DNA of 61,068 nucleotides from positions 1 to 61,068 of the forward strand of contig JAFSYY010000122.1 of assembly GCA_017455845.1 (NCBI GenBank), read 5' to 3'. The stretch is from Prevotella sp. Its GTDB lineage: Bacteria; Bacteroidota; Bacteroidia; Bacteroidales; Bacteroidaceae. Shown here piece by piece: positions 12,472 to 34,995 of this stretch. The notes under the pieces were generated by a model, which did no database searches, was not told the DNA's origin, and saw nothing but the letters and a program-made list of their open reading frames with translations. Position 1 is the stretch's first letter. The number at the start of each line of letters is the position of its first letter. A program made the translations under genes and the position numbers.

Positions 12472-13638
12472 ATGTTACAACAAGGCCAAACGTTTGGAAT
12501 AGATGATAGATACTTGTTAATCAGTCAGTTAGGAAAAGGAGGCTTCTCGGAGGTCTGGCTGGCTGACGACACTAGGACTCATGTTCAGGTGGCTATCAAG
12601 ATCTATGCTCCTGGCACCGGACTGGATGCTGCCGGCATCGAGATTTTTACGAAAGAGTTCTCGCTGGTGTTCGACATGAACCACACTAACCTGCTGAAAC
12701 CTACGTACTTCGACAGTTACGAGAATCAGCCCTACCTGATTCTGCCGTTGTGCAAGAACGGTTCTGCCTTCAAGTTTTTGGCCGATGGCAGGCGTATCAC
12801 GGAGCAGGAGTGTTGGAACATGCTGCACGACGTGGGTGCCGGCCTGGCCTATCTCCACAGCAAGAATCCTCCCATTATCCATCAGGACATCAAGCCGGAC
12901 AATATACTCATCAGCGACGAGGGGCATTATATGATTACCGACTTTGGCATCAGTGCCCGTGTGCGCAGCACCATTCGCCGTGGCCGTAGCACCAAGGGCG
13001 GTGAAGGCGGCACGCTGGCCTATATGGCTCCCGAGCGTTTCAGTTCACGCCCGAAGGCTATCATGGCCAGCGATGTGTGGTCGTTGGGTGCCATGATGTA
13101 TGAGTTGATGACGGGTGATCCTCCTTTCGGCGACAGTGGCGGTTCCGCCCAGCGTGGCGGTGAGCCTATACCAGATATCGAGGAGAACTACTCTGAGCAA
13201 CTGAAAGGCTTAGTCTATCAGTGTCTCTCGAAGGAGCCGGAGAACCGTCCGCTGGCCTCGAAGATTGAGGATCTGACCTATAAGTACCTGCATGGTATTG
13301 CCTGGAGCAGCAATGACTTGCCCAAGCCTAAGCCCGCCCCGCAGCCCGAGCCGGAACCGAAGCCTGCCCCGAAGCCGAAGGCGGAGCCGCAGCAGCCCTC
13401 GCGTCCTCTTTACGGTTCGCAGGCGATAGGTACACAGTCGGTACAGGGCTCGCAGATGAACCGCGGCTCGCAGATGCATTATTCCGACCAAGACCGCTAT
13501 TCCGAGCAGATGCCTCCCGAGATACCTGTTCCGCAGAAGAGCAACAATATATGGATGTGGGTTGCCGTGGGCGTTGCCGCCGTGCTGGCCCTCTGTATCT
13601 TTGTTGCTGTCCTGGTGTTTGTAGTCTTTGGCCGGTAG
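12472..13638 (+). CDS. Single-pass membrane Ser/Thr protein kinase (HQD type)
   Basis: Eukaryotic-type protein kinase, 388 residues. The glycine loop is GKGGFSEVW (21-29), the ATP-binding Lys is in VAIK (about 43), the catalytic loop is HQDIKPDN (137-144) and the metal loop DFG starts at 157, followed by APE. The Arg of the usual HRD is Gln, so activation-loop control probably differs, but the catalytic Asp and Asn are present. A Pro/Glu/Lys linker and a Ser/Gln/Tyr-rich segment precede one C-terminal membrane helix (about 361-384), leaving almost nothing outside. Closest relatives in the window are the kinases at 19606 and 29881. First gene of the locus, directly behind a promoter. Confidence 0.93.
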   Translation: MLQQGQTFGIDDRYLLISQLGKGGFSEVWLADDTRTHVQVAIKIYAPGTGLDAAGIEIFTKEFSLVFDMNHTNLLKPTYFDSYENQPYLILPLCKNGSAFKFLADGRRITEQECWNMLHDVGAGLAYLHSKNPPIIHQDIKPDNILISDEGHYMITDFGISARVRSTIRRGRSTKGGEGGTLAYMAPERFSSRPKAIMASDVWSLGAMMYELMTGDPPFGDSGGSAQRGGEPIPDIEENYSEQLKGLVYQCLSKEPENRPLASKIEDLTYKYLHGIAWSSNDLPKPKPAPQPEPEPKPAPKPKAEPQQPSRPLYGSQAIGTQSVQGSQMNRGSQMHYSDQDRYSEQMPPEIPVPQKSNNIWMWVAVGVAAVLALCIFVAVLVFVVFGR

Positions 13639-13710
13639 GCAGTCCTTAAATTTTCTGGCGCCAAGGAAAAGAAAAATTGAATACATAAGAACTAAAAAAC
13701 AGATAATACT

Positions 13711-14649
13711 ATGAGATGTAATAATTGTGGATGGGACAACGATCCCGGTAGCAGCAACTGCGTGAAATGCGGTCATTCCCTGTCTGGCGGCAACGCTGGC
13801 GGCGGTCACCCGTATCAGGGCGTGAATGTTCCAGACTACAGCCAGGATGGCGGTGCGCGTGCGCCGCGCCCCACCGTGATAGGTACGGATGCCATACGCA
13901 GGGAGATACAGGAGCGTGCTCCGCGCCCCACCGTGATGTCGCCCGGCTATGGCGGTGGCGCACCTGCTGAGCCTCGCCCCACCGTGATGTCGCCCGGCTA
14001 TGGTGGTGGTGCTCCCGCACAGAAGGTGCCGCGCCCCACAGTGGCCATGACAGGCGTAGGCCGTGGACACGCCGAGGAGGAGCCTGCTCCCGCCAGCGCA
14101 GCCAAGAGCGCCGCATCGCAACCTTTATGTCCTCACTGCGGCTTTGTGCTGGTAGGCGATTTCGCCTGTTGTCCTAATTGTGGCGCCACGCTCATCAATC
14201 AGTCGCCTGCCAAGGAAGAGCCCGTCATCCAGACCACGGTGAAGGAACAGGTGACATGTCCTAAGTGTCACTCCGAGGTATCGTCGAAGTTTGCTTTCTG
14301 TCCGATGTGTGGAGAGCGTCTGGTTCAGGAGCAGCCCGTAGCCAAGGGTCCGCAGTGCTCGCTGACCATGATCCCCGACGAGGATGAGGACGACATAGCC
14401 ACAACCAACAACTATGAGGGCGAGACCATTGTGCTCAACCGCGACAATACCGAGCCGTCGAACCGTACTATCACGTCGAAGGAGCAGGCCGTGCTCATCT
14501 GTGAGGAGGGCAAATGGTATATAGAGAACCGCAGCGAGCAGTGCTCCACCTATCTGGAGGCCAACCGCCGCCTGGAGGTGTTGCCGGGTGATGTCATCAT
14601 GCTGGGCGACCGCCGGTTTAAGTTCAATGCTGAATTGAATCAAGCATAA
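13711..14649 (+). CDS. Zinc-ribbon protein with PRPTV repeats and C-terminal FHA domain
   Basis: A 312-residue cytoplasmic adaptor. A zinc ribbon opens the protein (CNNCGWDN..CVKCG), two more lie centrally (CPHCG..CPNCG and CPKCH..CPMCG). Between the first and second is a Gly/Pro/Ala-rich linker with four PRPTV motifs, their Thr at about 55, 74, 91 and 110. The last 85 residues resemble an FHA domain (TIVLNRD...IENRSEQCSTYLEANRRL...GDVIMLGDRRFKF), though the usual SxxH is not obvious. I infer that the Thr residues are phosphorylated by the neighbouring kinases and bound by FHA domains. It sits between two kinase genes, 12 bp ahead of the next. Confidence 0.82.
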   Translation: MRCNNCGWDNDPGSSNCVKCGHSLSGGNAGGGHPYQGVNVPDYSQDGGARAPRPTVIGTDAIRREIQERAPRPTVMSPGYGGGAPAEPRPTVMSPGYGGGAPAQKVPRPTVAMTGVGRGHAEEEPAPASAAKSAASQPLCPHCGFVLVGDFACCPNCGATLINQSPAKEEPVIQTTVKEQVTCPKCHSEVSSKFAFCPMCGERLVQEQPVAKGPQCSLTMIPDEDEDDIATTNNYEGETIVLNRDNTEPSNRTITSKEQAVLICEEGKWYIENRSEQCSTYLEANRRLEVLPGDVIMLGDRRFKFNAELNQA

Positions 14650-14661
14650 AGTGTAGGAGAT

Positions 14662-15951
14662 ATGGCCAACTATCAAGTGGTAGACAGATGTGACTTCCAG
14701 CCCGGACAGAACGTCAACGGCAGGTACACGGTCATGAAGACCCTGGGCGAGGGCTCTTTTGGCGTGGTCTATCTGGTGGAGGACTCGCGTGGGAGCAAAT
14801 ACGCTCTGAAGTTGCTTCGCCTGTGGGAGGTGCCCTCGGAGATCCGCCAGCCGCTGATAGACCGTTTTGAGATGGAATACCAGACGGGGCAGATAGCCAG
14901 CGACAATCTGGTGCAGTCGCTCGACTATGGCAAGGTGGGCGGCAATCCGTTCATCGTCATGGAGTTCTGTCCGGGCGGCGACCTCGAACGGTTGTTGGGA
15001 AAGGCAGGCTACAGGGCGCCCCGCATCTGTCAGGAGGTGCTTTCTGGTCTGAAGGCGCTCCACAACCATGGCAAGGTGCACCGTGACCTGAAGCCCGAGA
15101 ACGTGCTGTTCAAGGAGAGTGGCGTGGCCGCCCTGACCGACTTCGGCATTGCCGGCGACCGTACGCACCGCATGACGCAGTGCAACTTCTTCGGCAAACC
15201 CAACCAGATCTTCGGCACCTACGCCTATATGCCGCCAGAGCAGGTGTCACGAGCCCGTGGCGGTGCCACCGTGAAGTTCACCACCGACATCTTCTCCTTC
15301 GGTGTCATGGCCTACCAGTTGCTGACGGGCGAGTTGCCCTTCGGCTCGCTGGAGTCGCATAATGAACTGGCCAGGTATCAGTCGAACGGCAAGAAAGGCC
15401 TCTGGAACAGAAGCCTGCTGCGCAGCCTGCCGGAGGGACAGCAGTGGGCACGCGCTATTGAGGCCTGCCTCGTGCCAAACTATAAGGAGCGCGTGCAGAC
15501 GGTCGACGAGGTGATGGAGATGATTCCAAGGAGTAACACCGGTGTGGTCAGACAGCGCCCTGCGGCAGCCTACGTAGAGCGGCCCGCCCAGCAGGTCAGC
15601 GGCTATCGACTACAGGTGATGCAGGGCGAGGAGCATGGCAAGACCTACGACCTGACCCAGATGGTACAGAGGGGTATGAGACGACTGACCATAGGCCGCC
15701 AGAGCGACAATAACGTCTATGTGAAGTCCGACTTCTCTGACTTCCTCTCCCGCCACCACTGCACCATAGAGCCCGACACAGGCCAGTGGCGCCTGATGGA
15801 CGGGCAGTGGAGTTCCGACAGGATGTGCTGGGTAGACTCTACCAACGGTACATTTGTAAACTCACGTCCCATTACCCGGACAGGCTTCTACCTTAAGCCA
15901 GGCGACATTATCTCCATGGGCGACGTTACCCTGCGCTTTGAGTCATATTAA
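14662..15951 (+). CDS. Ser/Thr protein kinase fused to a C-terminal FHA domain
   Basis: Soluble 429-residue kinase. The kinase domain (about 21-275) has GEGSFGVVY, ALKLL, a canonical HRDLKPEN loop (140-147), DFG, and PPEQ in place of APE. It is the only HRD kinase of the four here. After a linker, a well-preserved FHA domain (about 313-427) shows LTIGRQSDNNV, LSRHHC and STNGTFVNSRPI, so it should bind phospho-threonine peptides, perhaps its own or those of the PRPTV protein encoded upstream. No membrane helix is present. It probably belongs to the same transcript as the two upstream genes. An AT-rich gap of 102 bp follows. Confidence 0.93.
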   Translation: MANYQVVDRCDFQPGQNVNGRYTVMKTLGEGSFGVVYLVEDSRGSKYALKLLRLWEVPSEIRQPLIDRFEMEYQTGQIASDNLVQSLDYGKVGGNPFIVMEFCPGGDLERLLGKAGYRAPRICQEVLSGLKALHNHGKVHRDLKPENVLFKESGVAALTDFGIAGDRTHRMTQCNFFGKPNQIFGTYAYMPPEQVSRARGGATVKFTTDIFSFGVMAYQLLTGELPFGSLESHNELARYQSNGKKGLWNRSLLRSLPEGQQWARAIEACLVPNYKERVQTVDEVMEMIPRSNTGVVRQRPAAAYVERPAQQVSGYRLQVMQGEEHGKTYDLTQMVQRGMRRLTIGRQSDNNVYVKSDFSDFLSRHHCTIEPDTGQWRLMDGQWSSDRMCWVDSTNGTFVNSRPITRTGFYLKPGDIISMGDVTLRFESY

Positions 15952-16053
15952 ATTCTTTGGAACTATATAATAAATATGTATACATTATATAATATATAAG
16001 AGACATTTTTTATTTAAAATAAATATAGTATTAACCCTAAAACAAGTTGTATT

Positions 16054-17745
16054 ATGCAAGAGCAAAACACTTACAAACGCACTGTGGCCGGCTCAGTAGG
16101 AGCAGGTATGGGTGCCATCTTCAACGGCTCGGGACGTACTTACTACATCCTGGAGCACAAGACAAACTCCAAGTATCATCAGGCTGGTGAGTCTCAGAAG
16201 ATTATCATCGACGAGATTGAGATGGGTCGCGACGCCTCCTGTCAGGTTCGTTGGGAAGACACTGCTGAGTTCGAGATGGTCAGCCGCAAGCATGCTGCCA
16301 TCGTCCGCGACGGACAGAACTGGAAACTGGTACACCTCTCACAGTCGAACCCCACACTGGTAAACGGACGTCCCATACAGGGCACCTACTATCTGCAGTC
16401 GGGTGATGAGATCCAGTTGGCTGCCAACGGTCCACGCATGGGCTTCATCGTGCCGCAGGGTAAGCAGGCCATGACCTCCAGCATCAAACTGACAGAACGT
16501 ATGAACCTCTTCCGCCAGCAGGCTTTGGCTCCCTATAAGAAGGCTCTCTGGGCTATGGCCATCCTGTTGCTGCTCGTCATCATCGGATTCGGTGCATGGA
16601 ACTATAAACTGACTCAGGACAACAAGGAACTGATGGCTCAGGCAGAGGAACTCATGGAGCAGAGCGCAGCCCTCGACATGCAGATTGCCGACATGGAAGA
16701 GCAGATCAGGAACAATCCTGAGAATGCTGAGTTGAGAAAGCAAATCGAGGAGGTGAAGCAGCAGAAGCAGCAGGTGCAGACCCGCTACACCACCATCTAC
16801 CGCGACAACCCCGCCCTGCAGAGAGAACTGAACCGCCTGAAGGAGCAGATCAAGGAAGAGACGCCTGCTGCCGATGACATCATCGTTCCCAGCGGCGGCA
16901 CTACCGACAATGGCAATACCAGCAACGCTGACCCGAACGCCAAGAAGGATGCCCGCGAATACTATGGCAGCATCTACCGCATCATCGTGGAGAACATCAC
17001 CATCGAGGGTCCTGACGGTGTATCACGCCCGTCGAACCTCAGCACCAGCAAGATTGACTGCGGCTCCGGCTTCGTGACACCTAACGGCACATTCGTTACC
17101 GCACGCCAGAACATCCAGCCCTGGATCTATGTCGATGGCAACACACCGGCTGACAGTTGGCGCCGTCGCCTCGCAGTGCTCTATGCTCTGGGCAACGACA
17201 TCATCATCAACTACTCGGCTTACAGCACCGAGGGTCCTGCTGCACGCCTGCAGTTCAGCAGCCGCGACTTCAGCATGCCTACCGGCGGTGACATCGTCAT
17301 GGCTCACATCGCTATCACCGAGGAAGAGATTACCTTCATCGATGCTATCGGAGGCGTTTCCTACAACAAGAAGCAACTGCTGAAGGAAGGTCTCGACATC
17401 AAGCACGCCACAGCAGCAGCACGCTCATACGCTACACTGCCCGGCACTGGCCGCGCCGGTATACCTACCGATGCCGGTGCATCGCACAGCATCGCTGGTG
17501 GTCAGGCTCTTGACATCGTCTACTACGAGACTTCTAATGTGCAGAACCTCGCCGGTGCCGCTACCTACCGCACGGTTAACACGGAGAAGACCGACAATGC
17601 CGGTGGTACCATCCATCTGCAGGGCGGTCCTGGCGCAACAGCATTCGGCGCTCCGGTATTCATCCGTGAGAACGACGGTTCGCTGATGGTTGTCGGCTGC
17701 TACGTGGGTGGCGCAAAGGTTGTTCCCGTACACCGCTTCCAGTAA
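16054..17745 (+). CDS. FHA domain, membrane helix, coiled coil, and inactive trypsin-like domain
   Basis: A 563-residue transmembrane adaptor. The N-terminal cytoplasmic FHA domain (about 30-135) has MGRDASCQVRW, VSRKHAAIV and PTLVNGRPI. One membrane helix follows (about 165-184), then a coiled coil to about residue 270. The C-terminal domain has the trypsin-fold landmark GSGFVTPNGTFVTARQ, but the catalytic His position is Gln (about 352), and the GDSGGP region reads GATAFGAPVF with no Ser nucleophile. I read it as a periplasmic pseudoprotease that binds a ligand or peptide, coupled to phospho-dependent binding inside the cell. DegS/HtrA-like proteins are the nearest known architecture, but FHA is at the inner end here. 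A hairpin terminator follows at 17757-17794. Confidence 0.85.
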   Translation: MQEQNTYKRTVAGSVGAGMGAIFNGSGRTYYILEHKTNSKYHQAGESQKIIIDEIEMGRDASCQVRWEDTAEFEMVSRKHAAIVRDGQNWKLVHLSQSNPTLVNGRPIQGTYYLQSGDEIQLAANGPRMGFIVPQGKQAMTSSIKLTERMNLFRQQALAPYKKALWAMAILLLLVIIGFGAWNYKLTQDNKELMAQAEELMEQSAALDMQIADMEEQIRNNPENAELRKQIEEVKQQKQQVQTRYTTIYRDNPALQRELNRLKEQIKEETPAADDIIVPSGGTTDNGNTSNADPNAKKDAREYYGSIYRIIVENITIEGPDGVSRPSNLSTSKIDCGSGFVTPNGTFVTARQNIQPWIYVDGNTPADSWRRRLAVLYALGNDIIINYSAYSTEGPAARLQFSSRDFSMPTGGDIVMAHIAITEEEITFIDAIGGVSYNKKQLLKEGLDIKHATAAARSYATLPGTGRAGIPTDAGASHSIAGGQALDIVYYETSNVQNLAGAATYRTVNTEKTDNAGGTIHLQGGPGATAFGAPVFIRENDGSLMVVGCYVGGAKVVPVHRFQ

Positions 17746-17756
17746 ACTGCAACACT

Positions 17757-17794: not shown

Positions 17795-17827
17795 AAATCT
17801 TTAATAATATTTTTAATCACCAAAACA

Positions 17828-18130
17828 ATGAAAGCAATGAAGATAAAGAATATAGCCGTCATCGCTGTCATGGCACTTTTCACCATCGGACTGGCCGGAT
17901 GTCATACTACCAAAAAGACTGTTAATACTAAGACCAAGGAAGTTAGCACTGTGCTCAGCGACCAGGAGAAGCCCTTGACAGACTGGGTGAAGTGTACCAC
18001 ATGCAGCGGCAAGGGTACTTGCAGCAACTGCAACGGTAAAGGAAAGATAAACGGACGCACCTGCGCCGCATGCAGCGGAACAGGCAAGTGCAATATCTGT
18101 GGTGGCGAAGGTGGCCATCGCGCTTATTAA
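17828..18130 (+). CDS. Small lipoprotein with DnaJ-like cysteine-rich repeats
   Basis: A 100-residue exported protein. The start at 17828 gives MKAMKIKNIA followed by a hydrophobic core and a lipobox TIGLAGC. The mature part ends in four CxxC pairs of the CxxCxGxG type (CTTCSGKG, CSNCNGKG, CAACSGTG, CNICGGEG), the zinc-finger pattern of the DnaJ cysteine-rich domain, but with no J domain. Such a fold would bind two zinc ions and could act on unfolded or redox-active protein segments. It lies between the pseudoprotease and the phosphatase genes. Function is unknown. Confidence 0.8.
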   Translation: MKAMKIKNIAVIAVMALFTIGLAGCHTTKKTVNTKTKEVSTVLSDQEKPLTDWVKCTTCSGKGTCSNCNGKGKINGRTCAACSGTGKCNICGGEGGHRAY

Positions 18131-18163
18131 AAACCGTGCTTATTAAAATTATTTGATTAGATT

Positions 18164-19594
18164 ATGTCAGAAGTGAGATTCAAGTTGGCCGCAGGCACCA
18201 ACGTAGGACTTATCAGAACAAACAATGAAGATAACTTCGTGGTGTGTCCCGACCTCAGCACTTCACAATGGCTCATCCCCCAAGACGGCGACTATGCCGT
18301 CCTGGGGGAACTGGGAGCATTGCTCGTCGTGGCTGACGGTATGGGTGGCGCTAATGCAGGTGAGGTGGCTTCGGCTATTGCCGTTGAGACCATCCAGCAA
18401 CTGTTCGTACCGGACAAAATCCGTGGCGTGGTAAATGATGAAGCAGCCATCCAGAACTTCATGAAGGATGTCGTGAAGTCGGCTGACTTGAATATCCTGC
18501 AACGAAGCAAACAGGACGAGTCTGCCAAGGGAATGGGCACCACAGTGGTTATGGCCTGGATAATAGGACAGAGGGCCTACGTATGCTGGTGCGGAGACAG
18601 CCGTTGCTATTCCTTTAACTATAACAGGGGATTGTTGCAGATATCTAAAGACCATTCCTACGTGCAGGAACTGGTAGATCAGGGAGAACTGGAGCCAGAG
18701 TTCATGCACGACCATCCGCTGTCAAACGTCATCACTCGTTGCCTGGGCGACATGGAGAAGAGGGCCAACCCCGACACCAAGGTGTATGAGTTGTCCAACG
18801 GCGACAGCATCATGCTCTGTAGCGACGGTCTCTCAGGGCTTTGCTATGACGACCAGATTACGGAGATTATCGACAAGTTTGGCGAGAACCCCATGGACTG
18901 TAAGAACGAACTGATCTCGGCGGCTCTCAACAATGGCGGCCATGATAATGTGACCGTGGCGATGATTACCGTCAAGACAGATGATGACGCAGAACAGACC
19001 GTCAGGCCTGCGGCACCGCGTACGAAAGAGGAGAAGGAAGAGGCCGACACACTGAAGGACACCGTGAAGTCCTATCCAAAGATAAAGAAGAGACCCGTAC
19101 AGGAAAAGATAGAGGAAAAGCCCGTCGTCGTGGAAACACCTGCCGTGGTTGAGCCTGTTGTGGAGGAACCCGTGGCAGAACCTGTTGTGGAGACACCCGT
19201 AGTAGCAGAGCCTGTCGTGGAGAAACCCGTGGCAGAGCCTGTCGTGGAGAAACCCGTAAAGCCCGAGCCTGTTGCCAAGAAACCTGCCGAGAAGGAAAAG
19301 CCCGTCGAAGACAAAGAGGCTACGGAAGAAGCACCGGCCAAGGAGGATACCAAGGAGCAGGAGACAGAGGAAAAGAAAGATAATCCAGATGACAATGCTA
19401 CCGATGATCCTAAGTCTACCGCCAAGCCTGCCGCTCCGGTCAAGGTAAAAGGAACGTCGTGGACGGTGTGGCTGGTCGTTGTCATTGTATTCCTCTTGAT
19501 AGTGGCTTGCTGTATCTATTTCATCCCGGCATTTGCTCCCGTCAGGGAAGCCATCAGTCAGATGATTGGTGGCCAGTCGGCTAATCCTCAGTAA
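18164..19594 (+). CDS. PP2C-type Ser/Thr protein phosphatase with membrane anchor
   Basis: Metal-dependent phosphatase, 476 residues, expected to reverse the phosphorylation made by the kinases of this locus. Conserved motifs: RTNNEDN, VADGMGG (metal Asp), GMGTTVV, GDSRCY, LCSDGLSG and GGHDN. The catalytic domain covers about 1-275. A long Pro/Val/Glu repeat region (PVVEKPVAEPVVE type) forms a spacer to a single C-terminal membrane helix (about 430-455), the same topology as the kinases. It is followed after 11 bp by the second membrane kinase gene. It is the only phosphatase seen in the locus. Confidence 0.95.
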   Translation: MSEVRFKLAAGTNVGLIRTNNEDNFVVCPDLSTSQWLIPQDGDYAVLGELGALLVVADGMGGANAGEVASAIAVETIQQLFVPDKIRGVVNDEAAIQNFMKDVVKSADLNILQRSKQDESAKGMGTTVVMAWIIGQRAYVCWCGDSRCYSFNYNRGLLQISKDHSYVQELVDQGELEPEFMHDHPLSNVITRCLGDMEKRANPDTKVYELSNGDSIMLCSDGLSGLCYDDQITEIIDKFGENPMDCKNELISAALNNGGHDNVTVAMITVKTDDDAEQTVRPAAPRTKEEKEEADTLKDTVKSYPKIKKRPVQEKIEEKPVVVETPAVVEPVVEEPVAEPVVETPVVAEPVVEKPVAEPVVEKPVKPEPVAKKPAEKEKPVEDKEATEEAPAKEDTKEQETEEKKDNPDDNATDDPKSTAKPAAPVKVKGTSWTVWLVVVIVFLLIVACCIYFIPAFAPVREAISQMIGGQSANPQ

Positions 19595-19605: not shown

Positions 19606-21258
19606 ATGGAAGAAGAATTGTTCTATAATAAATATCGGAAAGAAGAATGTATTGGTCGTGGCGCGTCAGCAGAAGTGTGGCGTGTCACGGACATGCAAAC
19701 GGGGGTTACACAGGCTCTGAAGATCTATGACCCGGCACTGGCCAAGGAAGAGGACGGCCTGGACCTCATGCGACATGAGTTTGCCCTGATGGCAAATATC
19801 AACCACCAGAACCTGCTTAGGCCACTCTTCTTTGATATTTGGGACAAAACAAACACACCATTCCTTGTCTTACCCTATTGCAAAAACGGAAACCTTTCGA
19901 AAAAGAAAGGTGACTTCACTGATAAGGACACATGGGAACTGCTGCGCGACGTGGCCAGCGGACTGGCCTATCTGCACAAACAAGACCCGCCCATCATTCA
20001 TCAGGACATCAAACCCGAGAATATCCTTATCAACGACGACGGCTCATACATGCTGACCGACTTCGGTGTCAGTGCACATGCCAAGGCCACCATGCACCGC
20101 ACCATCAGTGCCAAACTGACCGATGTGGGAACCATGGCCTATATGGCACCGGAGAAGTTTGGAAAGGACAAGACACTGATTATCCTCAGCGATATCTGGT
20201 CGCTCGGCGCCATGGCCTACGAGATGGTGTCGGGCGAAGTGCCTTTCTGCATCGGACAGATGGAAGGCGGCGTGCTGCAACTAAAAGGTGCAGAACTGCC
20301 CGAATTGCCCGAAACCGTTTCGCCGGAACTCAGAGAAATGATTTACAAATGCCTCGAACTGGATCCCTGGGACCGCCCGCAGGCGTCCGATATCGAGGCT
20401 ACCGCCCGCATTGCACTGGGCGAAGAACGCATCTCCATACTGCCAGGAACGCTCACCGGCACCATAGGAGGTGCAATGGGTGGCACGCAGGGAAGAGGAA
20501 ACTTGCGTGGCACGCAGGTGATGACGGACGGCAGGAATCCTCAGGGGGGGCAGACGGTCACGCCGGGCGGTCAGTATGCCCCGCAGGGTGGCGCGAATGT
20601 GCCGCCAAAGAGTTGGGAAGCACCTAAGCAAAAGAAGCCATGGGCACTGATAGCCGCCATCGCCGGCGTGTTTGTCATCCTTGCCATCGCCGCTGTCACC
20701 TTGCTTCTCATGCTGCCTAAAGATGCAACAACGACGGCAGAGTCGGAGGTGACAGAGGCATCTACAATCGAGACAACCAATCCTGTTGTGAATATAGATA
20801 AGATTGAAAGTATGCTAAGGGAATCCAGTACTGCATTGGAAGGATGGCAATTGCTTTGCAACCTTGTTAATCAGGGAAATGATGCTGATGCATGTTTCCT
20901 TATGAGTCGTCTGTGCTTTAACCATGAAGTGAACGATAAGACATTGGAACTCAGACAGATACAGAGGATACTGAAACGGCAGAATGCGGTAGACTTCTAT
21001 ATAGACGATGAGAAGGCTCTTGAGTTGTTGAATAAAACTATAGAACTTAATCCAAAACATTATAAAGCCTTGTATGAGTTGGGAAATTATTATTTGTCTA
21101 TGGCACCAAAAGAAGGAGACTTTTACAAATATATTCCTATGGCAGACAATTATTTCAGGCAGTCACTGGAGTGGGCCAGTAAGGTAAATGATACTGATTA
21201 TTATGACCTGATAAAAGATAAAATGGCAAGTTATGAAGATTGGCTTAAAAACAAATAA
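19606..21258 (+). CDS. Membrane Ser/Thr kinase with extracytoplasmic TPR-like domain
   Basis: Protein kinase of 550 residues. The glycine loop is GRGASAEVW, the Lys is in ALKIY, the catalytic loop is HQDIKPEN (132-139), then TDFG and APEK. Like the first kinase it has Gln for the HRD Arg. A Gly/Gln-rich linker leads to a membrane helix (about 345-366). The outside part has a Thr/Glu stretch and TPR-like helices (LLNKTIELNPKHYKALYELG). Base composition falls towards AT in the last 400 bp, unlike the kinase part, suggesting that the outer domain was acquired separately. The next gene starts inside its last codons (26-bp overlap), so the two are tightly coupled. Confidence 0.92.
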   Translation: MEEELFYNKYRKEECIGRGASAEVWRVTDMQTGVTQALKIYDPALAKEEDGLDLMRHEFALMANINHQNLLRPLFFDIWDKTNTPFLVLPYCKNGNLSKKKGDFTDKDTWELLRDVASGLAYLHKQDPPIIHQDIKPENILINDDGSYMLTDFGVSAHAKATMHRTISAKLTDVGTMAYMAPEKFGKDKTLIILSDIWSLGAMAYEMVSGEVPFCIGQMEGGVLQLKGAELPELPETVSPELREMIYKCLELDPWDRPQASDIEATARIALGEERISILPGTLTGTIGGAMGGTQGRGNLRGTQVMTDGRNPQGGQTVTPGGQYAPQGGANVPPKSWEAPKQKKPWALIAAIAGVFVILAIAAVTLLLMLPKDATTTAESEVTEASTIETTNPVVNIDKIESMLRESSTALEGWQLLCNLVNQGNDADACFLMSRLCFNHEVNDKTLELRQIQRILKRQNAVDFYIDDEKALELLNKTIELNPKHYKALYELGNYYLSMAPKEGDFYKYIPMADNYFRQSLEWASKVNDTDYYDLIKDKMASYEDWLKNK

Positions 21259-26316: not shown

Positions 26317-28251
26317 ATGAAAGCAAACACTTTTTTCAGACTTATGGCTGCTCCGACCCTTCTCGTCGGCGGCATGATGACAGTTGGCTGTACTGACAGC
26401 AACTACGACCTGGGCAATATCGACAAGACGGTGGCCATCGGCAGTGAGCAGGGTATAGCACTGCCAGGTAATAACTCTACAAAGGAGTTGAAATTGAAAG
26501 ACTTCTTCAGCCTGCCCGAAAATGGTGTCATCAAAGTGGATGAGACCACGGGCGAATATGTGTTCTCCGAGTCTGCCTCACCCGATGCAACGAATATCCT
26601 CATCGAGCAGGTGGAGATGAGCAAGGAAAGTGAGTCAGAAGATGACTATAACTATGATTTTGCCGAGATTTTCAACGACATCCTCGGGGCTAGAGGTGCT
26701 AACAAGGCACCTGCTTCTGACGAGGGCTTCCGCGAGATTAAGCATTTCTCTTTCTATGGCGATGTACCCGAGGCTATTAAGACACTGAAAGAGGCTCGTT
26801 TTAATTCTACCATCGACATCACCCTCGACTTCTCGCAAGACCTGCAAGACAATATCAATGAACTGAAGAAAATGGTGGTCTATGTGCCTACATACTTCAT
26901 GCTTGGGGTGGATGTGTATCAGGTAAAGAAGGATGGTAGTGCTGAGACAAAATATCCAGAGAGCGTCTTTGATGCCTCTACCAACACCATGACGCTTACC
27001 TCGTTTGCATCCAACCAGAGAGGTGTGCACGTGGTTATTGCGCTGAAGGGCGTCTTCTTCAATACCACAAACGAGCGAGACCAGAAGGATAAATACTTCC
27101 TCAAGATGGATGAAAATGGTATCTCGATGGAGGGCGGCGTCTTTATGCAGGCGCTCTATGAGGATGCTGCCAGTGCACGCGGAAATCGTGTGGCTGCTAA
27201 CAAAGACCTGAAAATTGATTGTACAACCAAGGTGGGCGACATCACCATTGAGGGTGGTAAAGGTAACTTCAAGCCCGACATCGACTTCCAGGATGGCCTC
27301 GGCAATTTCTCCATCGGTGAGTTGCCCGACTTCCTTGATGATGATGAGGTGAAACTCAAGGTGAAGAATCCGCGTATCGTGCTGAATATCAGCAACGACA
27401 TCAACCTCTATGGACTGATTACCGATCCCTTTATCGTGGCTAATTATAAGGATGGCTCGCAGAAGAAAGTCGCCATCCAACCCTTTAAGATCAATCGCCA
27501 CGACAACAACGAAACCAGTCAGGAAACATCTACCACCACTACTGTCGTCGTGGTCAACGATGAGGCTTCACTCGGCGACATCAACAACGACTATGACTAT
27601 AGTTCCACCGTCACCTCCAACGAAAACCTCACCGAACTGCTGGAAGACATCAACGATATAGAGAACATCTCGTTCGAATGTAGTGCTACGACCGACGACA
27701 GCGAGGAAGGTGATGTTGAACTGGGCTATGAGTACACCATCCAGCCAGAGTTCGAGTTCTTCGCTCCCCTGGAGTTCGAGGCTGGCTCCACCATCGTCTA
27801 TAGCGACACCATCAGCGGTTGGCACGACGACCTGGAGAAACTGTCGTTCACAAAGGATACTTACGTCGAGATGACGGCCGATGTGTCCAACCAGTTGCCT
27901 ATGAACCTCATTGCTGAGGTGATTCCTGTGGAGGTCTATGCCGACGGCACCCTTCATAAAATGACCGCCGACCAGTTCACGGTGACCGTATGGACGGGCG
28001 ACGACGAGGCCCTCGGCCAGAATCTTATCTTTGCAGGCACTGCCTCTTCGCCCAGAGTCACCAAGTTGCATGTCAGACTCACCCAGAAGGATGATAACGC
28101 ACTCTCGCGCATCGACGGCATCATCTACCGTGCCAATGGTGTCACTCCCGATGATAACCTGTCTGAGGCCATCAAGGAGACCAGCCACCTGAAGTTGGAG
28201 AATGTAGGCATCTTCCTCAAAGGAAAGGTTGTCACCGACCTGGACGACTAA
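26317..28251 (+). CDS. Large lipoprotein paired with a DUF5723 outer membrane protein
   Basis: A 644-residue exported protein. The signal peptide has a hydrophobic core LLVGGMM and a lipobox TVGC followed by TDSNYD. The mature protein is acidic and beta-rich, with repeated strand-turn patterns such as IDITLDFSQDL and IVLNISNDINLYGL; no catalytic motif is visible. Position just before a DUF5723 barrel suggests that the two form an outer membrane pair, which I recall as a common arrangement in Bacteroidales but cannot verify here. Function unknown. Confidence 0.72.
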   Translation: MKANTFFRLMAAPTLLVGGMMTVGCTDSNYDLGNIDKTVAIGSEQGIALPGNNSTKELKLKDFFSLPENGVIKVDETTGEYVFSESASPDATNILIEQVEMSKESESEDDYNYDFAEIFNDILGARGANKAPASDEGFREIKHFSFYGDVPEAIKTLKEARFNSTIDITLDFSQDLQDNINELKKMVVYVPTYFMLGVDVYQVKKDGSAETKYPESVFDASTNTMTLTSFASNQRGVHVVIALKGVFFNTTNERDQKDKYFLKMDENGISMEGGVFMQALYEDAASARGNRVAANKDLKIDCTTKVGDITIEGGKGNFKPDIDFQDGLGNFSIGELPDFLDDDEVKLKVKNPRIVLNISNDINLYGLITDPFIVANYKDGSQKKVAIQPFKINRHDNNETSQETSTTTTVVVVNDEASLGDINNDYDYSSTVTSNENLTELLEDINDIENISFECSATTDDSEEGDVELGYEYTIQPEFEFFAPLEFEAGSTIVYSDTISGWHDDLEKLSFTKDTYVEMTADVSNQLPMNLIAEVIPVEVYADGTLHKMTADQFTVTVWTGDDEALGQNLIFAGTASSPRVTKLHVRLTQKDDNALSRIDGIIYRANGVTPDDNLSEAIKETSHLKLENVGIFLKGKVVTDLDD

Positions 28252-28260
28252 CGATTTCGT

Positions 28261-28354: not shown

Positions 28355-28366
28355 TAATTATGAACT

Positions 28367-29857: not shown

Positions 29858-29880
29858 ACAAACAGACGACTATTCAGCCA

Positions 29881-31257
29881 ATGGAGCGACTTCAGATTAA
29901 CGAAGGGATGTTGTGGGCCGCCCGCTATCAACTCGTGAAGAGACTCGGGCGCGGCAGTTTTGCCAGTGTATGGCTGGCATACGACACAGAGGCGGAAGTC
30001 GAAGTTGCGCTTAAGATTTTTGCGCCAGACACAGGCATGGAAGACGAGGACTTGGATAATTTCCGCGACGAGTATCGCCTGATGTTCAACCTCAACCATA
30101 CAAATATCCTGCACATCAATCATTATGATGTGCAGGATAATCGTCCTTATATTGTCCTGCCATTCTGTAGTAATGGCTCTGCCCAGAAACTTATTGGCAG
30201 GGCTACTGAGGAACAGACATGGGACTTTTTGGAGCAAGTCGCATCCGGACTTCATTATCTTCACGGGCAAGCAAACAGGATCATTCATCAAGACATTAAG
30301 CCTGCTAATATCCTCATCAATTCAGAGGGCCGGTATCTTATTTCCGACTTTGGCATCAGTCTGCGAATGCATAAGACAATAGTGCGTACCATGAAAACCT
30401 CTGAGGGATTCGACTATGAACGAGCCTCGGAGAAAGAGAAACTGAAAGCAGTGAGCGGAACGCTGGCCTACATGGGGCCTGAACGATTCACTGAAAAGCC
30501 GCAGGTGGTGAAAGCCAGCGACATTTGGTCGCTGGGAGCCTCTGCATACGAATTGCTGGAGGGTGAGCCGCCGTTTGGAGAGTATGGCGGCGATTCTCAG
30601 ATAGATATCCAGGCCGATCAGCCCGGGCTGGTGGGAAAGGTGCCTGCCATCAAAGCACCTGTGTCAGATGAACTGAAAAATCTCATTTATTCTTGCTTGG
30701 AAGAGACTATTTGGCCACGCCCTACGGCTCAGCGCATAGTGGAAATATGCCAGGCACGGAGAACGGTAAAAGATGCGCCGCCTCCTCCCAAGCCCCCAAA
30801 GCCTATAGTGTGGATAGCGTTGGCAGCAATAGCATTGGTATTAGTCTCGGCCGTTCTGTTGATATGGACTATGATGAGCGAAGAATCCACAGACAACCGC
30901 CAGCAATATGCCACTTTGTGCGCCGCCGGCGATTCGATAGTCAACGACCTGAAGCAGGGCGTGTTCAATGATCAGGAACTTGTTAAGGTAACCGACGTGA
31001 ACCTGAAACTAGAGCGTGCCCGTGAGAAATATGCCGAGGCACTGGCTGTCAATACCGGCGAAGAGACTTCTACGGCAGACGTCAATCTGCGTATGGAGCG
31101 TATGGATGTTATTACTGATTCCTGTCGTAAGATGACCCATTATGCCGACACCATTGCTATCCTGTATAATGAAGGACGTGTAGCCACGGCCGATGATTTC
31201 AAGGAAATGCAACAGGGATTGTCCAATAACATCAAAAAACTAATTTCCAACTTATGA
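29881..31257 (+). CDS. Membrane Ser/Thr kinase with helical outer domain (HQD type)
   Basis: Protein kinase of 458 residues. Glycine loop GRGSFASVW, Lys in VALKIF, catalytic loop HQDIKPAN (136-143), SDFG, and GPER in place of APE. It shares the LPFCSNGSAQKL segment with the two other HQD kinases (LPLCKNGSAFKF and LPYCKNGNLSKK), so the three are paralogues. A poly-Pro linker (PPPPKPPKP) leads to a membrane helix at about 309-331 and a mostly helical outer domain of about 125 residues. The stop overlaps the next start (ATGATGA), coupling it to the BACON/barrel gene. The insert after DFG contains an extended Lys/Glu-rich activation segment. Confidence 0.92.
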   Translation: MERLQINEGMLWAARYQLVKRLGRGSFASVWLAYDTEAEVEVALKIFAPDTGMEDEDLDNFRDEYRLMFNLNHTNILHINHYDVQDNRPYIVLPFCSNGSAQKLIGRATEEQTWDFLEQVASGLHYLHGQANRIIHQDIKPANILINSEGRYLISDFGISLRMHKTIVRTMKTSEGFDYERASEKEKLKAVSGTLAYMGPERFTEKPQVVKASDIWSLGASAYELLEGEPPFGEYGGDSQIDIQADQPGLVGKVPAIKAPVSDELKNLIYSCLEETIWPRPTAQRIVEICQARRTVKDAPPPPKPPKPIVWIALAAIALVLVSAVLLIWTMMSEESTDNRQQYATLCAAGDSIVNDLKQGVFNDQELVKVTDVNLKLERAREKYAEALAVNTGEETSTADVNLRMERMDVITDSCRKMTHYADTIAILYNEGRVATADDFKEMQQGLSNNIKKLISNL

Positions 31258-33173
31258 TGAATAAAAGAATAACAGTATTGTCTGTGCTGCTGCTGTCTGT
31301 TGCCTTGGCAGAACCTGCAGCAGGTCAGACATGCAAAGAATTATGGCGTAAGGCTGAGACACTGCGCAAGGGTGAGAACTATGACGCAGCCATCTCTACT
31401 TACCAGCAGGTAAAGGAATGTAACGACAAATCGTATGTCAAGGACTGTAATTATGCCATCAACTGGATTAAGCAAAACCGTCCTGTCAAGAAATCACAGC
31501 AGCCTGTCACCTTCAGTCTTTCCACCAAAGACATCACGCTGCCTTATCAGGGTGGTGAGTGGATAGTAAGGGTCTATGGTGGCAATGCATGGACATATAG
31601 TGTCGACGGCGACTGGTGCATAGTGAAGAAAAAGGGCAACCAACTCATCGTGTCAAGTGCCCAGGAAAATGAGAGCACCCAGCCGCGAAAGGCTAAACTT
31701 AAAGTGCAGAGTGGCGGTAAGACAAACACTGTAGATATTACAAATGAGGGGGCACCAGAGAAACTGCTCAGTTCGGTAAGCACACTCAACTTCCCTGCCC
31801 AGGGCGAGAATACAGACGTGGACATCTATGCCAATATCGACTGGCAGGTGGCTGAGAAAGCCTCTTGGGTAACGGCCGAGAAAGAGTCTGAGGGTCATGT
31901 GCGCTTTACTGTAGAGCCCAACCATCAGGGCAGTGAACGACAGTCTGTAGTGAAGATCGCGTCGCCATCCAATGCCATCATCTACATACAGATTAATCAG
32001 GGTGCAGGCGACGAGAAACTCTCGTTCTCAAAGAACAACCTGCTCTTTGGGCCTGACGGTGGCGACGAGTATGTGAAGGTATATACTGATGCTTCTAAGT
32101 GGAGGTTCGACAACATTCCCTCTTGGGTGCAGGTGTCGCGGGTCGGTGATGATATAGTACGCATCCACTGCGCTCCTAATGACCCCATCAACGAAAAACG
32201 TGAAGGCAGCGTTGGCATTTCAACAGGCCTACAGGTGTTAGGCATCAATATTGCTCAGGAGGCCAAGCCCGTGAGTTATCTTATTCCCATGCCCAACATC
32301 GGTGGCCGCAAACTGTCGTTCGGCATCAGCGCCTCGCTGGTCAAACCCACCATATCTGCGTCCTCTGACGGCTCCTTCACCGGCAGCCCCGTCAACTATT
32401 CGCTGGCCAACAGTGAAGAGAACTGTTCCTATACCACCAGCATGGGGTTCAGCGTCAATGCCTTTGCCGACATCCACCTCTACCGTAACCTCTACTTGCA
32501 GGCAGGACTGGGCATCACCCATTACACCTACAAGAACGAGTTTGAGGCTAACGTTGTACGCACCGTCCCACAGACCACCAATCTCTATTTGCAAGGTCGC
32601 ACTCAGAACAAATACTCCGAGGAGTATTCCATGACCATGCTGGAAGTACCTGTGCTGGCCAGTTACCGCTTCCCCATTACACGTATCAGCCATGTGCAAT
32701 TGAATCTCGGACCGGTGGTGACATACGGGCTGAACGCCAAACTGAAACTGGATGGCTATACGGATAGCGAGACAATGGAGTTCCATGAGGTGAAGACGGG
32801 CAACCGCTTCGGCACCGACTATGCTGCCATCCATTACCATGGCACCGGCGAGTTCAACCTTTACGACACCAGCGTTGACTACAAGGAAAAACATAGCGAA
32901 CTGGGCGGTATTGATGTAGGCCGCTCGCAGACGCTCGACGACTCACCCTTGAGTAGGCTGAACGTGGGGCTGCGTGCCGGCGTTGCCTTCGAGTATGCGG
33001 GCATAGGCATCGGCCTGGAATACACCTATATGCTGACCAATATGGCCAACAAACGCTTCTGGGACGGTGACCGATGGAAGATCTTCGACCAGAATGTCAA
33101 CTCGCCAATGTCTGGCTATAGCGAGCGTCACCACTATCTGGGCATCAAGATTGGCTATACCTTCAGGTATTAA
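31254..33173 (+). CDS. BACON-domain protein with C-terminal outer membrane barrel
   Basis: A 639-residue exported protein. After the signal peptide (to about residue 24) come TPR-like helices (LRKGENYDAAISTYQQVKE), then three BACON-type sandwiches between about 85 and 350 (for example WTYSVDGDWCIVKKKGNQL, VDIYANIDWQVAEKASWV and VKVYTDASKWRFDNIPSWV). The last 280 residues form a beta-barrel ending IKIGYTFRY. BACON domains usually bind carbohydrate, mucin or protein outside the cell; here they would face the periplasm or surface depending on topology. The start overlaps the stop of the kinase gene, as does the WG gene with its kinase, a recurring kinase-exported-protein pairing. Confidence 0.85.
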   Translation: MMNKRITVLSVLLLSVALAEPAAGQTCKELWRKAETLRKGENYDAAISTYQQVKECNDKSYVKDCNYAINWIKQNRPVKKSQQPVTFSLSTKDITLPYQGGEWIVRVYGGNAWTYSVDGDWCIVKKKGNQLIVSSAQENESTQPRKAKLKVQSGGKTNTVDITNEGAPEKLLSSVSTLNFPAQGENTDVDIYANIDWQVAEKASWVTAEKESEGHVRFTVEPNHQGSERQSVVKIASPSNAIIYIQINQGAGDEKLSFSKNNLLFGPDGGDEYVKVYTDASKWRFDNIPSWVQVSRVGDDIVRIHCAPNDPINEKREGSVGISTGLQVLGINIAQEAKPVSYLIPMPNIGGRKLSFGISASLVKPTISASSDGSFTGSPVNYSLANSEENCSYTTSMGFSVNAFADIHLYRNLYLQAGLGITHYTYKNEFEANVVRTVPQTTNLYLQGRTQNKYSEEYSMTMLEVPVLASYRFPITRISHVQLNLGPVVTYGLNAKLKLDGYTDSETMEFHEVKTGNRFGTDYAAIHYHGTGEFNLYDTSVDYKEKHSELGGIDVGRSQTLDDSPLSRLNVGLRAGVAFEYAGIGIGLEYTYMLTNMANKRFWDGDRWKIFDQNVNSPMSGYSERHHYLGIKIGYTFRY

Positions 33174-33228
33174 GCGATGCTAACCAATAATAGAATAACA
33201 AATAATAACTAAAACAATCTTATTGACA

Positions 33229-34995
33229 ATGAAGAAAATTATCATGCTGTTTGTGAGTGCCTTGTGCTTGGCGGGATGCAGCGAGTCAGACCTTGTTGAA
33301 TCAATCATTAAACCAGAGAAACTGTCTGGCGAGTGGGTCTACGACCATCCCGAGGAAGGCGTATGGGAAACGATGAAGTTCACGGAGTCGGGCGTGTTCT
33401 ACTACTCTAACGACGTGGCTACATGGAACATAAACAACGACCGAAATGATGGACGCTATTCCGTGTCAGGTGACCATGGCGAATATCTGCATGGATCATA
33501 CACGGAGAATGGACAGCCCATGGAAGTGAACATGACCTTCTCCGTTCTCAACGACTATAGTTTCACGGCCACGTTTGCCGAGACAGGGCTTACCTTTACA
33601 TACTCCCGTCTGCTTACCACGCAGCGCTTGAAACAGGGCGAGACAATAACGCCCAACTATCAGTCACTGGTGAGTGCCGAGATTAATTGGTACAGGTCGC
33701 ACGACACCAGCATTGCCACGGTAGACACCTATTCCGGTGAGATAACCGGCGTGGCGGTCAGCGGACGTACTTATATCGACGTGGTCACCACTAAGGGCAC
33801 GGCTGTCGTCGAAGTCCTTGTCTCAGACCCGGAGAATCTCTTCGACGACTATTACTGGGCCTTCGGCCTCACGGTCAACGAAGTGGAACAGCAACTGGGC
33901 AGTAAATATCTGTATAAGAATGAGGCCTCTGGTATCTCCTATAAATCAAAGAACCTTGCAGTAGATAAGGAGACCTATATGACAAGTGTTATTGATGATC
34001 TCCATATCGAATTCGTGCAATTGGATTTGAACAGCACAGTTACTTCAAGCCAGGTGCTGAATCTGCTGAATAAGACATATCGTAGTTTAGGAAAGAACGA
34101 GCAAGGTAACGACCTCTTTTATGAGGATAGTAGGGGATTGTTGGTGATATATGATTCCTCTGAGTCCAAATTGTCCTTTGCAAAGCAGATAGCATGGCCT
34201 GATTTTGGGGGCTATTTCGGACTGAATAGCATAGAGGTGCGGACGCGCATGGAGACAAACGGTCATTCGTTCTTTGGCAGTTACGAGTCCTATTCGGTCA
34301 ATGGCTCTGAGGGATATATACTCGAAGCAGGCAATACTTACATTGGAGCCGTGGAGTTTGTGTTTAATACAGACAATGTCGTTTCTGTCTATTTGCTCTA
34401 TCCGCAGTCCAGGACTACCACAAAACTGATAAACCAGCACTTCACTGACATGGGGCTGACAAAGGATAGTGAAAGCGGAATCTACTATAATGCCAAAAGA
34501 ACACTGAGTGCTGTCTACGACAAAAGGATTGGTGCCATTGCCGTTACCGACTTGACTAAGAAGGCCTTTGAAAGGAATATCCTGGGTGACTACTGGAGAA
34601 TGCTTGGAAAAACCCAGGCTCAGGTCAAGGAGGACTATGGTCAGCCTACTGTTTCGGCCAGCGACCATCTGACTTACAGTGTCGTTGGTGCGAATACGGA
34701 GTATGCCCAGTATGTGAACTTTATCTTTAACAACAACTCCAGCGAGGTAAATCTCATTAACCTCTTCCTGCAGACATCGGTTCAAGAGAGTACCATCAAG
34801 TATTTCCTCTCCAAACTCTACAAGACATTCGACGATGGCACGAACGCCAACGGCAGGTACTACCGCTACATCAACGGACAGGCACGCGAATCGTCGTCAA
34901 TGATGATTACTTACTATCCGGAGTATCAGGTAGTGGTCTATCAGCATCCTAGCACGGCCAGTGCCCGCGAGGTGCAGTCGTTCGGTGACAGGTAA
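33229..34995 (+). CDS. Lipoprotein with bacterial Ig-like domain
   Basis: A 588-residue lipoprotein; the ATG at 33229 starts the signal peptide MKKIIMLFVSALCLAGC with a clear lipobox. Residues about 145-205 look like a Big_2 Ig-like domain (SAEINWYRSHDTSIATVDTYSG). The N-terminal part is a lipocalin-like strand set (LSGEWVYDHPEEGVWETMKF). Two similar internal segments (TVNEVEQQLGSKYLYKNEASG and MLGKTQAQVKEDYGQPTVSASD) hint at an internal repeat. No catalytic motif. It is the last exported protein of the signalling locus, followed by folP after a GTACCTCG repeat. Confidence 0.75.
   Translation: MKKIIMLFVSALCLAGCSESDLVESIIKPEKLSGEWVYDHPEEGVWETMKFTESGVFYYSNDVATWNINNDRNDGRYSVSGDHGEYLHGSYTENGQPMEVNMTFSVLNDYSFTATFAETGLTFTYSRLLTTQRLKQGETITPNYQSLVSAEINWYRSHDTSIATVDTYSGEITGVAVSGRTYIDVVTTKGTAVVEVLVSDPENLFDDYYWAFGLTVNEVEQQLGSKYLYKNEASGISYKSKNLAVDKETYMTSVIDDLHIEFVQLDLNSTVTSSQVLNLLNKTYRSLGKNEQGNDLFYEDSRGLLVIYDSSESKLSFAKQIAWPDFGGYFGLNSIEVRTRMETNGHSFFGSYESYSVNGSEGYILEAGNTYIGAVEFVFNTDNVVSVYLLYPQSRTTTKLINQHFTDMGLTKDSESGIYYNAKRTLSAVYDKRIGAIAVTDLTKKAFERNILGDYWRMLGKTQAQVKEDYGQPTVSASDHLTYSVVGANTEYAQYVNFIFNNNSSEVNLINLFLQTSVQESTIKYFLSKLYKTFDDGTNANGRYYRYINGQARESSSMMITYYPEYQVVVYQHPSTASAREVQSFGDR

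What the first reader, a model, noticed from the sequence alone, without database searches (positions are those of the whole stretch)
12472..34995. A kinase-phosphatase-FHA network interleaved with exported proteins
Four Ser/Thr kinases, one PP2C phosphatase and four FHA-bearing proteins share one strand with about nine exported proteins, and two kinase genes overlap the start of an exported-protein gene (21233-21258 and 31254-31257). Kinase/PP2C/FHA sets are known beside type VI secretion loci, but no tss gene is here. I infer an envelope-sensing or envelope-building phosphorylation system that I do not recognise as described.
Basis: partly seen in the sequence, partly recalled or inferred. 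Interest (0 to 1): 0.85.

Follow-up and report, generated by a model that had tools for sequence, protein, structure and literature searches.

The report
Envelope phosphorylation hub with plug-in sensors
A gut Prevotella-like bacterium carries a conserved set of protein kinases, a phosphatase and phospho-binding proteins, with membrane kinases usually encoded beside an exported protein, that looks like a way to pass signals between the cell surface and the cell interior and that I could not find described.

Summary
In detail: four Ser/Thr kinases, one PP2C, four FHA or FHA-like proteins and nine predicted exported proteins share one strand at 12472-34995, with both overlaps as stated. The stretch is not one system.

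(1) A conserved core: zinc-ribbon/FHA-like protein, soluble kinase-FHA, FHA-TM-trypsin-like hub, PP2C-TM. All four families are in 74 of 80 named loci (chosen by the hub) and in 9 of 9 loci from other families; 71 of the 80 have a membrane kinase, 61 an HQD one.

(2) Plug-in units of membrane kinase plus exported partner: K3-WG-OMP-lipoprotein and K4-BACON/barrel-lipoprotein. Both modules recur beside kinases of other systems.

(3) Probable passengers: the lipoprotein-DUF5723 pair stands alone in 31 same-genus genomes, none with the core. No linkage was found for the C10 peptidase or the second zinc-binding FHA.

A T6SS is not needed: TssC was not found in 7 of 7 core-bearing same-genus genomes (several incomplete) or in 43 of 49 genomes behind the named loci. 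The hub's HtrA-like domain has an intact triad in many relatives but is a pseudoprotease in the window's clade.

I infer trans-envelope phospho-signalling that works like the T6SS threonine-phosphorylation pathway. Signal, direction and output are not shown.

The parts
12472..13638 (+). K1: HQD (non-RD) kinase with C-terminal TM and no periplasmic tail
   Evidence: Pkinase E 8e-48; tail 0 residues, while the 25 membrane kinases of L034-L056 whose best match is K1 have tails of 101-242 aa
13711..14649 (+). ZF1: zinc ribbons plus C-terminal degenerate FHA; core gene
   Evidence: DZR; FHA in 30 of 49 family members, not in the window copy; family in 76 of 80 loci
14662..15951 (+). K2: soluble HRD (RD) kinase with C-terminal FHA; core gene
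   Evidence: Pkinase 3.5e-39, FHA 4.5e-15; 79 of 80 loci
16054..17745 (+). FHA-TM hub with coiled coil and periplasmic degenerate trypsin/HtrA-like domain; core gene
   Evidence: FHA 3.7e-13; FHA key residues in 80 of 80; hhalign to the active-triad domain 99.9%
17828..18130 (+). small lipoprotein with CxxCxGxG repeats, near the PP2C gene in some Prevotella loci
   Evidence: read from the DNA; best-hit family in 14 of 80 loci
18164..19594 (+). PP2C phosphatase with C-terminal TM; core gene
   Evidence: PP2C_2 1.4e-15; 79 of 80 loci
19606..21258 (+). K3: HQD kinase, TM, periplasmic TPR-like tail
   Evidence: Pkinase 4.6e-48, TPR_17 below cut-off
21233..22804 (+). WG-repeat + CARDB-like exported protein, partner of K3
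   Evidence: WG_beta_rep 1.3e-24, CARDB below cut-off; pair conserved
22879..23568 (+). outer-membrane barrel following WG
   Evidence: OMP_b-brl_2 8e-11; WG-OMP-lipoprotein order also in L070, L123 and L126; WG-OMP in L042
23604..24620 (+). lipoprotein following WG-OMP
   Evidence: no Pfam; homologues in the same order in L070, L123 and L126
24623..25633 (+). C10 peptidase; linkage to the system not shown
   Evidence: Peptidase_C10 1.3e-50; best-hit in 1 of 80 loci
25684..26295 (+). second zinc-binding FHA protein; linkage not shown
   Evidence: FHA 1.1e-9; best-hit in 0 of 80 loci
26317..28251 (+). lipoprotein of the LP2-DUF5723 pair; probably a passenger
   Evidence: with its neighbour in 31 other same-genus genomes, none with the core; but beside the cluster in L042
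28367..29857 (+). DUF5723 protein, outer-membrane type by eye; probably a passenger
   Evidence: DUF5723 3.5e-93
29881..31257 (+). K4: HQD kinase with TM and about 130-aa periplasmic tail
   Evidence: Pkinase 3.6e-48
31254..33173 (+). exported BACON + outer-membrane barrel protein, partner of K4; starts inside the end of the K4 gene
   Evidence: BACON 1.2e-17, OMP_b-brl_2 3e-11; kinase-BACON/barrel pair upstream of the core in L071, L074, L076, L083, L094 and L137
33223..34995 (+). lipoprotein; its family follows PP2C in the BACON/barrel-type loci

Best explanation
A T6SS-independent trans-envelope Ser/Thr phosphorylation system. Non-RD (HQD) membrane kinases are coupled through the periplasm to exported partners: WG/OMP/lipoprotein for K3, BACON/barrel/lipoprotein for K4; K1 has lost its partner. 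When a partner signals an envelope state, the cytoplasmic kinase domain phosphorylates the core. The core is the RD kinase K2 with its FHA, the zinc-ribbon FHA-like adaptor, and the FHA-TM hub whose conserved N-terminal Thr/Ser is a candidate site. FHA docking clusters phosphorylated proteins at the membrane, and the hub carries the change into the periplasm through an HtrA-like domain, a protease in many relatives and a binding pseudoprotease here. The membrane PP2C resets it. Shown: domains, gene order, intact FHA residues in the hub, triad loss, kinase-partner linkage. Inferred: direction of the signal, that K2 lies downstream, the acceptor site, the output.
For: All four core families in 74 of 80 loci, selected by the hub, and in 9 of 9 loci from other families or class. 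HQD in 102 of 120 membrane kinases. The next non-core gene after a membrane kinase is exported in 86 of 90 scored cases against 158 of 319 for flanking genes; the exported ones fall in 27 clusters, the others in 4. Partner type follows the kinase tree: 19 changes against 44.0 shuffled, lowest of 100 shuffles 37. Exported modules recur beside kinases of other systems. Window K1 lacks both its tail and the BACON partner gene that its clade has. Hub: FHA residues 80 of 80, Thr/Ser at position 10 in 80 of 80; in 28 sequences chosen for His and Ser motifs the Asp is invariant too; the window-type domain is homologous to theirs.
Against: Other core genes are also often followed by an exported gene (53 of 65), so part of the enrichment belongs to the neighbourhood. 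Apart from window K1, 12 short-tailed kinases were scored and 11 still have an exported neighbour, so tail-partner contact is not general. Nine of 80 loci show no membrane kinase in the fetched stretch (some are cut by contig ends). Position 10 is Ser in 28 of 80 and FHA domains prefer pThr (recalled), which weakens an intramolecular switch. In the distant loci 3 of 6 kinases found by motif had an exported next gene, one had a kinase and two neither. Related sequences are not independent. No phosphorylation, interaction, expression or localisation data; signal peptides are heuristic.
Confidence: 0.57

Rival explanations
1. It is the threonine-phosphorylation branch of a type VI secretion system whose tss genes are elsewhere or lost.
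For: A Pfam-checked T6SS locus of a relative (G110) ends in a related kinase, weakly WG-like protein and PP2C; the same trio lies on TssC-bearing contigs of G059 and G097. Seven of 80 loci hold a cluster whose one scanned member matches TssR, and so does a protein in the core locus of G032.
Against: The hub profile gave no match in the T6SS-type genomes G110, G097, G047 and G068 and only a weak partial one in G059. T6SS-type kinases form their own clade.
Confidence: 0.13
2. The neighbourhood is a stack of unrelated operons; only the cytoplasmic core is one system and the exported genes are chance neighbours.
For: LP2-DUF5723 stands alone in 31 other genomes. Flanking genes in these loci are exported in 158 of 319 cases. 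One WG and one BACON/barrel homologue have no kinase beside them (L127, L129).
Against: 86 of 90 against 158 of 319, 27 exported partner clusters, partner type clustered on the kinase tree, and the same modules beside different kinase systems.
Confidence: 0.14
3. An anti-phage or mobile-element system: kinases held in check by the phosphatase.
For: Patchy distribution (7 of 120 genus, 9 of 295 order). MotA/ExbB-like genes, as in some defence systems (recalled), in a minority of loci.
Against: Of ten window proteins scanned with PADLOC, the four kinases give only kinase-type matches, PP2C one weak match and the hub two weak ones. Exported barrels, lipoproteins and a periplasmic HtrA-like domain fit surface sensing better.
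Confidence: 0.07
4. An envelope-building or secretion regulator in which the kinases report assembly of the outer-membrane partners and the real output is export or folding of surface proteins through the HtrA-like domain.
For: HtrA/Do/DegS profile match of the active-triad domain; TssR-like, ABC/FtsX and MotA/ExbB genes in sub-types.
Against: Those sub-type genes are not in the window, and the window's HtrA-like domain has lost its triad.
Confidence: 0.18

Closest known systems
Threonine phosphorylation pathway of T6SS (TagQRST-PpkA-Fha-PppA; PMC10482370, passages read)
   Same: Membrane kinase, FHA target, phosphatase, and envelope proteins upstream of the kinase.
   Different: TssC not found in most core-bearing genomes searched; several membrane kinases; a soluble kinase-FHA; an FHA-TM-HtrA-like hub; partners are WG, BACON and barrel proteins. 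No TagQRST-like set was recognised in the window.
T6SSiii membrane complex TssNQOPR (PMC10781749, passages read)
   Same: A TssR-like protein lies beside the core in one sub-type.
   Different: No tss gene recognised in the window; the term count for that paper's text gave 0 for kinase and for FHA.
HtrA/Do/DegS proteases
   Same: The periplasmic domain of the hub family's active-triad members matches them by profile; the membrane-anchored layout recalls DegS (recalled).
   Different: Cytoplasmic FHA; no PDZ among the Pfam matches of the three copies scanned (window, L028, L012); catalytic triad lost in the window's clade.
KKP prophage kinase-kinase-phosphatase module (PMC11341870, passages read)
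   Same: Kinases, PP2C and an FHA-bearing kinase.
   Different: KKP is phosphatase then two kinases, one with a cold-shock domain, mostly in prophages; here no cold-shock domain was found and the order and partners differ.
PASTA kinase/Stp pairs
   Same: Membrane kinase with an extracytoplasmic tail, plus PP2C (221 bits against a cut-off of 230 for Stp1).
   Different: No PASTA domain found by Pfam; scores of K1-K3 far below the kinase family cut-off.

Membership tests
T6SS threonine phosphorylation pathway | membrane kinase, FHA protein and PP2C encoded together | tested here: met
T6SS threonine phosphorylation pathway | coupled to a T6SS apparatus (TssC as marker) | tested here: not met
T6SS threonine phosphorylation pathway | periplasmic/outer-membrane activator of the kinase | not testable with these tools
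   exported partners are linked but activation needs experiments
HtrA/Do serine protease (hub C-terminus) | trypsin-like domain with His-Asp-Ser triad | tested here: not met
   homology met; triad conserved in 28 of 62 aligned sequences, absent from the window copy
KKP | PP2C followed by two kinases, one with a cold-shock domain and one with FHA | tested here: not met
   gene order and Pfam; definition from passages of PMC11341870
PASTA kinase (PknB/Stk1) | PASTA repeats and score over the family cut-off | tested here: not met
   no PASTA in Pfam for K1-K4; NF033483 160, 148 and 140 bits for K1, K2 and K3 against 450; K4 not scanned with NCBIfam
FHA phosphopeptide-binding domain (hub) | conserved binding residues G-R, S-R-x-H, N-x-T, N | tested here: met
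   80 of 80 sequences, window included

The most novel reading that the evidence does not exclude
A Bacteroidota-wide phospho-signalling chassis, separate from T6SS, in which exchangeable pairs of HQD membrane kinase and exported sensor plug into one FHA/kinase/PP2C core. An FHA-TM-HtrA hub works across the inner membrane and became a signalling pseudoprotease in Prevotella. The same sensor modules were shared with T6SSiii loci, so T6SS control may have borrowed from it, or the reverse.
Probability: 0.41. Interest if true: 0.82.

Novelty: new variant of a known kind. Interest (0 to 1): 0.63.

Why it matters
Ser/Thr kinase signalling is, as far as I recall, poorly charted in Bacteroidales. If right, this gives abundant gut and rumen bacteria a defined route from outer-membrane sensors to cytoplasmic phosphorylation, with testable kinase-sensor pairs, a phosphatase and an unusual FHA-TM-HtrA hub. 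It would also show that TPP-like control is not tied to T6SS.

Tried and rejected
One system over the whole stretch: rejected, because LP2-DUF5723 is independent and no linkage was found for the C10 peptidase or the second zinc-binding FHA.

T6SS by default: rejected. In Palleniella (L101) a T6SS lies on the same contig, about 16 kb from the core to TssC, on the other strand, with other genes between. For the other five TssC-positive genomes the TssC contig differs in length from the core's contig, so linkage was not seen.

First background for exported neighbours (225 of 776): replaced, because it counted core genes as next genes. The fairer controls are 158 of 319 and, after other core genes, 53 of 65.

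Kinase tree: the first run (20 changes against 48.4) carried six T6SS-linked kinases labelled WG by hand. Only three of their next genes match the window's WG protein, weakly, though five of the six are clearly one family. Without those rows: 19 changes against 44.0.

HxD count: (101 of 109 membrane HQD, 77 of 80 soluble HRD) admitted only R or Q. With any letter, 102 of 120 membrane kinases are HQD (8 HRD, 6 HHD, 4 others or none). Of 78 soluble ones 62 are HRD, and in 16 the motif was not found in the slice searched.

Dropped rows: the fourth BACON match (G031, E 1e-16) covers BACON repeats only. In one search, 37 of 120 genomes had some hub-profile match at E 0.001, but all beyond the 7 are weak (best 8e-19, part of the profile).

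Empty-site test with HerA: 44 of 100 genomes matched, 30 loci were fetched (one the window's own), and in none of the other 29 was another of the 26 window genes tested found within about 1.5 kb. No insertion site was shown. GC is about 0.49-0.54 from 18 to 38 kb and mostly higher outside, a weak hint only.

Active-site regex: an over-strict first version missed GCSGGP; redone on an alignment of 62 sequences, 61 of 73 long relatives plus the window. Short hubs without the domain: 6.

No structure was obtained. The pseudoprotease profile matched no solved structure up to E 1. The last protein (L133) was given in the wrong orientation; its result is not used.

Not in print: papers searched; nothing describing the cluster was seen. 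The listings were cut (for instance 8 of 1,128). Passages only were read. The library holds open-licence papers only.


Full report
Observation. The own assembly has 5 Pkinase matches over the cut-off and four of them lie here. The fifth (C73) belongs to a different locus with AAA ATPase and PP2C genes.

Conservation. In 120 same-genus genomes the FHA-TM hub is strongly present in 7, the own genome included (E below 1e-150). An alignment search of named genomes found 148 relatives, of which 80 loci were kept. In these, by best match to the window's genes, PP2C is found in 79, kinase-FHA in 79, the hub in 79 (the bait) and the zinc-ribbon FHA-like protein in 76. All four are in 74 loci, three in 5 and two in 1; 71 loci have a membrane kinase and 61 an HQD one. 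In the order 9 of 295 genomes have the hub and in the phylum sample 2 of 247, the own genome counted in both. The 9 loci fetched from those other genomes all hold the four core families (in L134 the kinase-FHA gene reads as two ORFs, in L140 the hub family as two genes). Seven of 9 have a further kinase gene of the membrane type nearby, one cut by the contig end.

Membrane kinases and exported partners. Of 120 membrane kinases in the 80 loci 102 have HQD. By established kinase knowledge (recalled) HQD makes a non-RD kinase, so K1, K3 and K4 should not need activation-loop phosphorylation while K2 (HRD) may. Where the next gene within 250 bases on the same strand is not a core gene, it is exported in 86 of 90 cases (83 of 90 with a stricter rule); the exported ones fall in 27 clusters, the others in 4. 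Flanking genes give 158 of 319 and other core genes 53 of 65. On a tree of 119 kinase domains, with 88 labelled rows, the partner type needs 19 changes against a shuffled mean of 44.0, lowest 37 of 100 shuffles (quick tree, long branches noted; related sequences are not independent). Window K1 sits in a set of 24 rows of which 20 have a BACON-type partner, one another exported partner and three no label. It has lost both that partner gene and its periplasmic tail. Other short-tailed kinases still have exported neighbours (11 of 12 scored), so the coupling need not run through the tail.

Modules move. The WG protein has homologues in 5 other same-genus genomes. Four of the 5 lie in other kinase/PP2C/FHA loci (FHA partly by eye) or, in G049, on a TssC-bearing contig. 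In L123 and L126 it is followed by the same barrel and lipoprotein families in the window's order; in L124 and L125 it follows an FHA-like gene, not a kinase. The BACON/barrel protein has strong homologues in 3 others: two beside HQD kinases (G072, G068), one not (G116). The order kinase-BACON/barrel-ZF1-K2-hub-C4-PP2C-LP3 occurs in L071, L074, L076, L083, L094 and L137, which explains the window's K4-BACON/barrel-LP3 block. By contrast LP2 and DUF5723 are found together in 31 other same-genus genomes, next to each other by coordinates, and in none of the 6 other core-bearing ones. In the 12 loci fetched, some cut by contig ends, no match to the window's kinase, FHA or PP2C genes was found. 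One locus, L042, does have LP2 beyond K3-WG-OMP, so an old linkage is possible.

The hub. In 80 sequences, window included, the FHA contact positions (G58, R59, S77, R78, H80, N99, T101, N104) are invariant. Position 10, in the near-invariant N-terminal YKR[TS] motif, is Thr in 52 and Ser in 28. The C-terminal domain of relatives is trypsin-like (Pfam Trypsin 1.3e-10 in L028). In 28 of 62 aligned sequences both His and Ser motifs are present, and there the Asp is invariant too. Their profile matches HtrA, Do and DegS proteases of solved structure, best E 1e-8. The window-type domain is homologous to it (99.9%, E 3e-33) but has Gln for His and lacks the Asp and Ser. So the protease became a pseudoprotease in this clade (the direction of change is inferred), and some other lineages also lack part of the triad.

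Link to T6SS and other machines. A Pfam-checked T6SS locus (G110) ends in an HQD kinase, a weakly WG-like exported protein and a PP2C. G059, G047 and G097 have the same trio, with TssC on the same contig in G059 and G097, and the middle proteins are one family. These kinases form one separate clade. In one sub-type, and in G032, the core is followed by a TssR-like protein and ABC/FtsX-like genes; G032 is 97% complete and has no TssC match. Another sub-type has MotA/ExbB-like and MotB-like genes (the MotB likeness is by eye).

Mechanism. I propose that exported partners report the state of the surface to HQD kinases, that these phosphorylate the FHA core, and that the hub passes the change back to the periplasm, with PP2C as reset. 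Domain content, order and linkage are shown; direction, substrates and output are inferred. The closest working parallel is the T6SS threonine phosphorylation pathway (PMC10482370, passages). The system works like it, but membership fails on the apparatus.

The tree figure was recomputed without hand-given labels, the HxD count was widened to any letter, and the overlap of two genomes between the T6SS counts is now told. Confidence, the novel-case odds and interest were each lowered by 0.01 for these.

Noticed in passing
L021 and L020 (genome G110): A T6SSiii locus (TssC, VgrG) contains E1 (ThiF), borderline E2 (UQ_con) and weak JAB matches, an 804-aa protein with a weak RING match (FHA and VWA parts only by eye), and a small protein that looks ubiquitin-like by eye (no Pfam match): a possible ubiquitin-like conjugation set.
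   Followed up: partly
L016:9743-12166 (genome G032) and cluster C17 in 7 of 80 loci: A TssR-like protein with ABC ATPase and FtsX-like permease beside the core, in a 97% complete genome without a TssC match.
   Followed up: partly
L082, L088, L097, L100, L108 and L109; L133, L134 and L136: MotA/ExbB-like (Pfam on one member) and N-terminal-TM coiled-coil (MotB-like by eye) genes lie beside the kinase core in a minority of loci, L109 with the second only.
   Followed up: partly
L030 (own genome, contig C73): A second, different kinase locus: 1068-aa kinase, multi-AAA protein and small PP2C.
   Followed up: no
window 24623-25633: The C10 peptidase has a C-terminus that looks like a type IX secretion sorting tail (by eye, recalled; not tested).
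   Followed up: no
window 35791-36573: A diadenylate cyclase gene (cdaA) follows a folP-like gene (named by eye) directly downstream of the cluster.
   Followed up: no
L123, L124 and L125 (genomes G023, G037, G051): Other kinase-PP2C clusters with FHA-like genes (by eye), also carrying WG-type exported proteins.
   Followed up: partly
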